The notes below the pieces were generated by a model, which searched no databases, had not been told where the DNA came from, and saw nothing but the letters and a program-made list of their open reading frames with translations. Positions 11,765 through 32,677 of a stretch of DNA of 33,687 nucleotides are shown here, in pieces; positions within the stretch are counted from its first letter, which is position 1, and the number at the start of each line of letters is the position of its first letter. The stretch spans positions 1-33,687 of the forward strand of contig JAISIF010000102.1 of NCBI GenBank assembly GCA_031262165.1. The letters run 5' to 3'. The position numbers and the translations under genes were made by a program. The stretch comes from Myxococcales bacterium (GTDB taxonomy: Bacteria; Myxococcota; Myxococcia; Myxococcales; UBA5297).

Positions 11765-11969
11765 AGCAGCACTTGCCGCCTGAGCATTGCCTCCGATTCT
11801 TTCGAAGATTGGATAAATTCAATGATTCGCTGAATCTTCAATATTTTGGCAGCAATCGAATTCTATCGATTCCAATCGGAACTCCCATTTTCAGCGATGG
11901 TATCGTCAACGAAATATTTGAATAGCCAGTCGTTTTCCAAATGTCTCTACTTGGAAAAAACATCCTCTT

Positions 11970-12055
11970 TGTGAGGAGCGGAGACGAAGCAATCCCGTAA
12001 TGTTTGTGACGACGGACGAGCGCCTTGGATTGCCTCGCTTCGCTCGCAATGACGA
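11970..12055. repeat. REP-type inverted repeat (GAGGAGCGAAGCGACGAAGCAATCC class)
   Basis: The left arm GTGAGGAGCGGAGACGAAGC leads to AATCCC. The right arm starts GGATTGCCTCGCTTCGCTCG and ends CAATGAC. This is the widespread bacterial inverted repeat that translates as SLRAKRGNP in one frame. Open frames crossing it should not be called as genes. It sits in the gene-free 11765-12361 spacer. Confidence 0.75.
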
Positions 12056-12076
12056 GTCGCTGAAAGTGAATTGATG

Positions 12077-27499: not shown

Positions 27500-27673
27500 A
27501 GCGCGGCACTTTGGGGAAGGCAACAGGTTTTTGGTTCGATTCAGAGCGCGGATAAATTTGTTCAATTATTAAACTTTTTCCCTCGATGCATATCTTCAAA
27601 TCTTTCATCTCAATGATGCGCGCAATGATCCGTCATTGCGAGCAAAGCAAAACAACATGCTTCGGTAAACCCA

Positions 27674-31784: not shown

Positions 31785-31800
31785 TGTCAGAGAAATGACG

Positions 31801-31939
31801 AATCAATCGTTTTTCCTTCGATGGCGAGGCCAAGCGATCGCTCGTCGTGGACAATCACCCTGGATTGCGTCGCTGCCTCGCGAGAACGATGAATTCTCTC
31901 GCCATCGAATCAATGGCGATTCGAACGATTTCGATTCGA
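31801..31939. repeat. 139-bp direct repeat, left copy
   Basis: It matches 32425-32563 at 129 of 139 positions, with no gaps and identical sequence over the last ~65 bases. Inside, TTCGATGGCGAG near the left end is the exact inverse of CTCGCCATCGAA near the right end, and CAATC-ACCCTG-GATTG forms a further small hairpin, so each copy can fold as a long hairpin. Together the two copies flank a decayed IS200-type transposase. Confidence 0.85.
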
Positions 31940-31941
31940 GT

Positions 31942-31972
31942 AAAAAGCCCCCAGCAAAGCAGGGGGCTTTTT
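31942..31972. terminator. Bidirectional terminator hairpin
   Basis: A perfect 11-bp stem, AAAAAGCCCCC / GGGGGCTTTTT, with a 9-nt loop and T-tracts on both strands. It lies at the 3' side of the transposase remnant. Confidence 0.88.
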
Positions 31973-31984
31973 GATTGTAAGCCG

Positions 31985-32280
31985 CTCAAGAAGATCTTCT
32001 ATTATTGTTGAAACGAAATACCCGCGAGCCTCCAAATACCCGATCAACATAAATCGAACTCTTTCTATTGATATAACCGACCACCGATGCCACCGAATGT
32101 TTCGGCGGTATCGATGACAATATGTGAACATGTTCGGGCATCAAACGCCCTTTCTCAATAACGCATTCTTTTGACATGAAATCTCTCTCATCACATTCAC
32201 AAGGTTTTTTCGAAGTTTTCCATAGAGTGCTTTCTTTCGATACTTTGGAATGAATAGCACGTGACATTTGCACTCCCATG
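31985..32280 (-). pseudogene. tnpA: Decayed IS200/IS605-type transposase TnpA
   Basis: Translated in shifting frames on the minus strand, it gives CHVLFIPKYRKKALYGKLRK, then after a frameshift GRLMPEHVHILSSIPPKHS and VVGYINRKSSIYV, then after a second shift ARGYFVSTI. These are successive conserved parts of TnpA of the IS200 type, including the HUH metal motif (HVH). At least two frame changes are needed. The C-terminal helix that would carry the catalytic Tyr is not recognisable, so it is inactive. It lies between the two 139-bp direct repeats. No TnpB is present. Confidence 0.82.
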
Positions 32281-32424
32281 TCGAGTGATTTTAAAATCTT
32301 ATATCATCCATGAATATCTTTTCATTTAATATTCTTGGCGGCTCACGAAATAGATTTCATGAATGTTCTATTGATAGGCCAAACCGTTTCAATCCCCCGG
32401 CAAAGCCGGGGCTTTGCCTTTAGA

Positions 32425-32563
32425 AATCAATTCTCTTTCCCTCGATGGCGAGGCCAAGCGACCGTTCGTCGTCGGCAATCACCCTGGATTGCTTCGCTAC
32501 CTCGCGAGAACGATGAATTCTCTCGCCATCGAATCAATGGCGATTCGAACGATTTCGATTCGA
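32425..32563. repeat. 139-bp direct repeat, right copy
   Basis: Same orientation and length as 31801-31939. It is preceded by a small hairpin CCCCGGC-AAA-GCCGGGG (32395-32411) followed by CTTT. It ends 114 bp before the glmS start, so it probably lies within or upstream of the glmS promoter region. No glmS ribozyme or other leader structure was recognised in the remaining gap. Confidence 0.85.
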
Positions 32564-32677
32564 ATCAAATCCCCCACCCGCCTTCCCCAAAAATCGCGTT
32601 GACGCATTCCTGCAATTTTTCGATGGACCCCTACCTTTGGCGTCACGTCTTTTCTCGAGGGAAGGAAGAGGTCGAAC

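What the first reader, a model, noticed from the sequence alone, without database searches (positions are those of the whole stretch)
31801..32563. IS200 transposase relic bracketed by two 139-bp hairpin-forming direct repeats
The two repeats are 93% identical without gaps, and each has a 12-bp inverted pair at its ends. IS200 elements have no such long direct repeats, so these are more likely hairpin elements (PATE- or REP-like) that IS200-type TnpA can mobilise, or products of repeated insertion beside it. The 3' 65 bases are identical, which suggests recent spread or gene conversion.
Basis: partly seen in the sequence, partly recalled or inferred. Interest (0 to 1): 0.5.

Follow-up and report, generated by a model that had tools for sequence, protein, structure and literature searches.

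The report
Jumping-gene relic between tandem palindromic repeats
A dead copy of a common bacterial jumping gene sits at the joint between two neighbouring copies of a worn palindromic repeat; both parts are of known kinds and there is little sign that the jumping gene spread the repeat.

Summary
The repeats and the relic are real. The relic (tnpA on the minus strand) is a decayed IS200/IS605-family element at about 31940-32425, with ends placed from relatives; both subterminal hairpins remain, but tnpA is broken and no Y---Q motif is left. Leaving it out joins TTTCGATTCGA|ATCAATTC, which matches the uninterrupted right end of copy 2, TTTCGATTCGA|ATCAAATC. So the locus was most likely a head-to-tail pair of 138-bp units, and the IS inserted 3' of TTGAT at their joint. 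Its core resembles a worn CGTC-tagged REP dimer; the genome holds at least about 116 such places, nine with tandem neighbours. The units share no hairpin with the IS ends, so they are not PATEs. Two other IS200 copies here also lie within 45 nt of a CGTC REP (3 of 6), but 0 of 80 related loci elsewhere show a REP-profile hit within 60 nt (both flanks held in 72). Targeting is possible but weakly supported. Known kinds, unusual juxtaposition.

The parts
31802..31939 (+). Unit 1: 138-bp repeat with a degenerate CGTC-REP-dimer core
   Evidence: REP-dimer profile hit 31793-31897, 24.7 bits, E 8e-7 in the set; not listed at E <= 0.1 in the genome search
31940..32425 (-). Decayed IS200/IS605-family insertion sequence (486 bp); left in the window = RE, right = LE
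   Evidence: ends by homology to 31 copies with identical tnpA stretch, 29 in one Acidovorax strain and 2 in one Achromobacter strain, by the 83% match to L011 and by the junction test
31942..31972 (-). RE subterminal hairpin AAAAAGCCCCCAGCAAAGCAGGGGGCTTTTT; RE tip TTAC on the minus strand
   Evidence: I4; similar hairpin near the RE of L009, L010, L011 and L014
32395..32411 (-). LE subterminal hairpin CCCCGGCAAAGCCGGGG
   Evidence: resembles the RE hairpin (score 30, against 11-17 for units versus IS ends)
32034..32281 (-). tnpA relic: HUH region readable (MPEHVHIL), frame broken, no Y---Q motif in any minus frame
32426..32430 (-). TTGAT (ATCAA on +) flanking LE, probable insertion target; the same pentamer flanks LE in L011
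32426..32563 (+). Unit 2: 138-bp repeat, 128/138 identical to unit 1
   Evidence: profile hit 32447-32520, 23.6 bits, E 1.7e-6; R1 model hit 32430-32514, 23.8 bits, E 0.024
32553..32568 (+). Internal empty site: TTTCGATTCGA|ATCAA at the right end of unit 2, uninterrupted counterpart of the IS-carrying joint
11936..12068 (+). Well-preserved CGTC REP dimer in the same window, for comparison
   Evidence: 91.6 bits and 79.1 bits; it is one of the training sequences of both models (as L021), so these scores are by construction. Found independently by pattern with 1 mismatch

Best explanation
A 138-bp unit built round a degenerate CGTC-tagged REP head-to-head dimer was duplicated head to tail, as REP dimers are at several other places in this genome. 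An IS200/IS605-family element then inserted on the minus strand 3' of a TTGAT at the joint of the two units, without target duplication, and later decayed. Shown: the repeat pair, the IS ends and hairpins, the broken tnpA, the matching uninterrupted joint, the REP-like core, tandem REP dimers elsewhere. Inferred: the order of events, single-strand insertion (from the family's known mechanism), duplication by slippage or unequal recombination, and later conversion that made the last 64 bases identical.
For: IS ends from 31 copies with identical tnpA (29 Acidovorax, 2 Achromobacter) map to 31940 and about 32425. Of 961 boundary pairs tried, the longest continuation of the repeat across the joined flanks (8 nt) falls at 31940/32425 or its equivalent one base left; the next best is 5 nt. 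Chance per fixed pair 0.0003 in sequence of this kind; about 0.009 over 30 pairs that I judge compatible with the homology-derived ends. Full unit only at this site. Profile hits on both units (24.7 and 23.6 bits). Unit 2 against the C155 and L044 tandems exceeds 200 of 200 shuffles, unit 1 exceeds or equals all but 1 of 200. At least about 116 REP-dimer places (137 hits less 21 opposite-strand duplicates, my count), nine of them groups with same-strand neighbours starting 88-131 bp apart; C155 has period 117, 4.3 copies.
Against: No orthologous empty site: in G001, G002 and G003 the sequence upstream of glmS is not homologous, apart from about 100 bp in G002. Over all 961 boundary pairs an 8-nt match is expected about 0.3 times, so the junction match counts only because it lies where homology puts the ends. 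REP membership of the units is weak: E 0.024 for unit 2, unit 1 not listed at E <= 0.1; against the C157 array 60 and 54 of 200 shuffles reach the units' scores. The target pentamer rests on 2 copies. Duplication of unit plus IS followed by precise excision of the second IS would leave the same sequence.
Confidence: 0.78

Rival explanations
1. The 138-bp units are PATE- or REP-like non-autonomous elements moved in trans by an IS200-type TnpA, which inserted them on both sides of the relic.
For: Units fold as hairpins and are bounded by TTGAT on the minus strand; a tnpA copy with no stop in its 112-aa frame, cut by a contig end, exists in the genome (L009).
Against: Full unit found nowhere else in the genome or in 59 other genomes. 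Units share no hairpin with LE or RE (scores 11-17, against 30 for LE versus RE). In a tandem array any phase is equal, so the TTGAT border follows from where the IS sits.
Confidence: 0.05
2. IS200 elements of this subclade prefer, or are carried with, CGTC REPs: their position beside REPs is not random.
For: 3 of 6 IS200-type copies in this genome lie within about 45 nt of a CGTC REP: the window, L011 (43 nt from LE) and L012 (abutting). Binomial 0.0025 at a background of 0.052, 0.024 without the window. REPs as IS targets are reported for other IS families (PMC1525189, abstract and passages).
Against: 0 of 80 related IS200 loci in other genomes have a profile hit within 60 nt (both flanks held in 72 of 80; 29 of the 80 are near-identical copies of one strain, and REPs that differ from this genome's could be missed). 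With the background of 0.143 from selected stretches the figures are 0.042 and 0.15. L009 was seen on its RE side only. The copies may be related by descent.
Confidence: 0.12
3. A single unit with the IS beside it was tandemly duplicated together with the IS, and the second IS copy was then excised precisely.
For: IS200/IS605 excision is precise by the family's mechanism (recalled) and would leave the same joint.
Against: Needs an extra event; no trace of a second IS right of unit 2.
Confidence: 0.1

Closest known systems
IS200/IS605 family, tnpA-only (IS200 group)
   Same: Y1_Tnp/transpos_IS200 relic with HUH motif, subterminal hairpins at LE and RE, no target duplication seen, TTGAT flanking LE
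   Different: Broken frame, no Y---Q motif: a relic
CGTC-tagged REPs (Di Nocera et al. 2013, PMC3733652; abstract, sections 6, 14, 16 and the first part of 17 read)
   Same: Right arm TGGATTGCTTCGCT..CTCGC, a left arm like GATGGCGAGG, head-to-head layout, spacer end CAATCACCC as in good copies of this genome
   Different: Terminal CGTC and parts of the left arm and spacer lost; unit of 138 bp, against 117 bp in the C155 array and 114-131 bp in the C157 array
REPINs and RAYTs (Bertels and Rainey 2011, PMC3116915; search listings only)
   Same: Two REPs in inverted order forming one larger hairpin (definition recalled), dispersed in many places
   Different: No RAYT beside CGTC REPs was seen among this genome's 7 Y1_Tnp places; its one RAYT-like gene (L017) lies among GTAG-type palindromes
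PATEs (palindrome-associated transposable elements; PMC7290912, passages)
   Same: Short hairpin-forming repeat near an IS200-type gene
   Different: A PATE carries the IS ends; these units do not

Membership tests
IS200/IS605 (IS200 group) | Y1 HUH transposase related to TnpA of IS200 | tested here: met
   PF01797 1e-8, above its cut-off; NF033573 3.4e-8 for a 63-aa piece of the relic, 33.8 bits against a cut-off of 55; 94.1 bits for L009
IS200/IS605 (IS200 group) | Subterminal hairpins at LE and RE | tested here: met
   31942-31972 and 32395-32411
IS200/IS605 (IS200 group) | Insertion 3' of a fixed tetra- or pentanucleotide without target duplication | tested here: inconclusive
   TTGAT at LE in the window and L011 only; no duplication seen at the window joint
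IS200/IS605 (IS200 group) | Catalytic Tyr in a Y---Q motif | tested here: not met
   absent from the three minus frames of 31940-32310: a decayed copy, not an active element
CGTC-tagged REP | Terminal CGTC, 8-9 bp stem, 4-5 nt loop, CCA tail | tested here: inconclusive
   right arm kept, terminal CGTC lost; profile E 8e-7 and 1.7e-6 in a small set, 0.024 for unit 2 and none for unit 1 genome-wide
CGTC-tagged REP | Many dispersed copies | tested here: inconclusive
   met for the parent family (at least about 116 places); the 138-bp unit itself has 2 copies
PATE | Carries the LE/RE palindromes of the IS that moves it | tested here: not met
RAYT/REPIN system | Transposase of RAYT type beside the REPs | tested here: not met
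   the relic fits transpos_IS200 better than REP_Tyr_transpos (33.8 against 17.4 bits)

The most novel reading that the evidence does not exclude
In this lineage an IS200-type TnpA targets, or has spread together with, CGTC-tagged REP dimers, which would give the CGTC superfamily, reported to lack a dedicated transposase, its first transposase partner. REP dimers and Y1_Tnp genes are both present here and neither was found in the two sister genomes examined (89% complete).
Probability: 0.07. Interest if true: 0.55.

Novelty: new member of a known kind. Interest (0 to 1): 0.22.

Why it matters
It shows how a suggestive layout, a transposase gene bracketed by long hairpin repeats, can arise from two ordinary events. 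It also records a CGTC REP-dimer family with tandem arrays in one genome that was not detected in its two sister genomes. If the IS200-REP proximity proved real, the open question of what spreads CGTC REPs would become testable here.

Tried and rejected
PATE reading: rejected, no shared hairpins and single-site occurrence. Orthologous empty site upstream of glmS: G001 and G003 show no homology before the gene, G002 about 100 bp only; G004 gave no close glmS match. General IS200-REP association: 80 loci scanned; profile hits at E <= 1 in L077 (three, the nearest 416 nt past the tnpA match), L128 and L103, none within 60 nt. Of the 31 identical copies used for the ends, 29 are Acidovorax and 2 Achromobacter; the 29 alone give the same ends. 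Y1_Tnp genes of G003 look like another group; those of G004 are at or near the cut-off. Rfam at gathering thresholds: two tRNAs only. A first null for the junction match (0.0019) counted self-matches; the corrected figure is 0.0003.

Full report
Observation. Two ungapped direct repeats lie at 31801-31951 and 32425-32575 (91% over 151 nt). Bounded as 31802-31939 and 32426-32563 they are 138 bp each, 128 identical; the 10 differences are all in positions 7-74, for which an even spread gives probability 0.0015. The copies fold better than shuffles (z -2.66 and -3.07 as DNA; z -2.93 for copy 1 as RNA). Between them lies a relic of an IS200-type transposase on the minus strand (PF01797 1e-8). The genome has 9 Y1_Tnp matches at 7 places.

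The IS. A scan of public genomes gave 80 relatives of the L009 tnpA at 66-72% identity, the best of 469. In 31 copies with an identical tnpA stretch, 29 from one Acidovorax strain and 2 from one Achromobacter strain, conserved sequence starts at CTAGCTACC and ends at GGTTAC, with GC-rich hairpins just inside both ends. The own-genome copies L009, L010, L011 and L014 have a similar hairpin near RE, with GTAA or TTAA just outside it on the strand shown. The nearest relative of the relic is L011 (83% over 404 nt). Mapped on the window, the RE tip is 31940 and the LE tip about 32425, a 486-bp element. Its tnpA is broken: the N-terminal part is in one minus frame, the HUH part in another, and no Y---Q motif is found in any. 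Between two matching blocks L011 has 248 bp where the window has 16, so part of the 3' region is probably deleted.

The joint. With 31940-32425 left out, the flanks read TTCGAACGATTTCGATTCGA|ATCAATTCTC. The right end of unit 2 reads TTCGAACGATTTCGATTCGA|ATCAAATCCC without interruption. Of 961 boundary pairs tried, the longest continuation (5 nt right plus 3 nt left) is at this pair or its equivalent one base to the left; the next best is 5 nt. In sequence of this kind the chance for one fixed pair is 0.0003; about 0.3 such matches are expected over all 961 pairs, and 0.009 over 30 pairs that I judge compatible with the homology-derived ends. The match therefore counts because it lies where the homologues put the ends. 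The simplest history is a head-to-tail pair with period 138 into which the IS inserted 3' of TTGAT (minus strand) without target duplication. TTGAT also flanks LE in L011. Insertion 3' of a tetra- or pentanucleotide without duplication is how the family is described (PMC7290912, passages; PMC6006769, passages on the tetranucleotide flanking LE).

What the unit is. The full unit is found twice in the genome, both here; three further matches are core stretches of 23-31 nt. None of 59 other genomes of the order has it at E <= 1e-5. Its core CAATCACCCTGGATTGC.TCGCT..CTCGC is the spacer end and right arm of a palindromic family that fits the CGTC-tagged REPs of Di Nocera et al. (PMC3733652; abstract, sections 6, 14, 16 and the first part of 17). 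A strict pattern gives 35 places against 0 for the reversed control. A profile from 19 dimers hits unit 1 at E 8e-7 and unit 2 at E 1.7e-6 in the window plus loci. A covariance model from 17 sequences gives 137 hits at E <= 0.1 (150 of 2184 first-look candidates scored), which I count as 116 places after removing 21 opposite-strand duplicates; unit 2 is among them at E 0.024, unit 1 is not. Against the C155 and L044 tandems 0 or 1 of 200 shuffles reach the units' scores, but against the C157 array 60 and 54 of 200 do. So the units are probably, not certainly, worn REP dimers. Same-strand neighbours starting 88-131 bp apart occur at nine places in the list, among them C155 (period 117, 4.3 copies) and C157 (12 units), so tandem REP dimers are common in this genome.

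Is the IS linked to REPs? Of 6 IS200-type copies (window, L009, L010, L011, L012, L014; the RAYT-like L017 left out; L009 seen on its RE side only), 3 lie within about 45 nt of a CGTC REP: the window, L011 at 43 nt and L012 abutting. I took a background of 0.052 from 116 places of about 220 nt over an intergenic share of 30,292 in 188,484 bases (own arithmetic); the binomial is then 0.0025, or 0.024 without the window. With 0.143, measured directly on stretches chosen for hits, it is 0.042 and 0.15. In other genomes 0 of 80 related loci have a profile hit within 60 nt; both flanks are held in 72 of them. At E <= 0.001 REP dimers were found in G000 only, of 21 genomes (best 150 candidates each), and no Y1_Tnp match was found in the two sister genomes G001 and G002, both 89% complete. 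This is compatible with a link and with two separate acquisitions. Di Nocera et al. report that CGTC repeats are not associated with transposase genes (section 16). Tobes and Pareja report REPs as insertion targets of several IS families (PMC1525189, abstract); a machine-read table row there lists IS200 with 1/25 for Salmonella LT2.

Verdict. The mobilisation reading fails its own refuting test, the PATE reading fails for lack of IS ends in the unit, and insertion into a tandem pair explains the exact fit. What remains open is whether this IS200 subclade prefers REP-rich sites.

Noticed in passing
L017:1444-1965 (G000:C27): A 173-aa RAYT-like tyrosine transposase (REP_Tyr_transpos 5.8e-16, 58.7 bits, below the curated cut-off of 80) lies among GTAGGGGCG...CGCCC palindromes of GTAG-REP type; the genome thus seems to hold both REP superfamilies.
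   Followed up: partly
G000:C157:10696-12187 (in L158): An array of 12 REP-dimer units with start-to-start spacing 114-131 bp.
   Followed up: partly
L032:69-567 (G000:C155): Tandem array of a 117-bp REP-dimer unit, 4.3 copies.
   Followed up: partly
window 11936-12068: A well-kept CGTC REP dimer, inside a minus-strand ORF whose translation contains SLRAKRGNP.
   Followed up: no
window 27613-27654: A weak half-REP hit of 20.4 bits.
   Followed up: no
L061 (G002), upstream of glmS: Tandem repeats of about 45 bp (CCGCGACGCCTCTTCCTTGTCGCGTTGCG type) upstream of glmS in a sister genome, where the window has the REP units.
   Followed up: no
L067 (G003:C252): A Y1_Tnp gene flanked by long inverted repeats (GAGCTGGCTTCAGCCAGC), which recalls the TIRYT genes of Di Nocera et al..
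   Followed up: no
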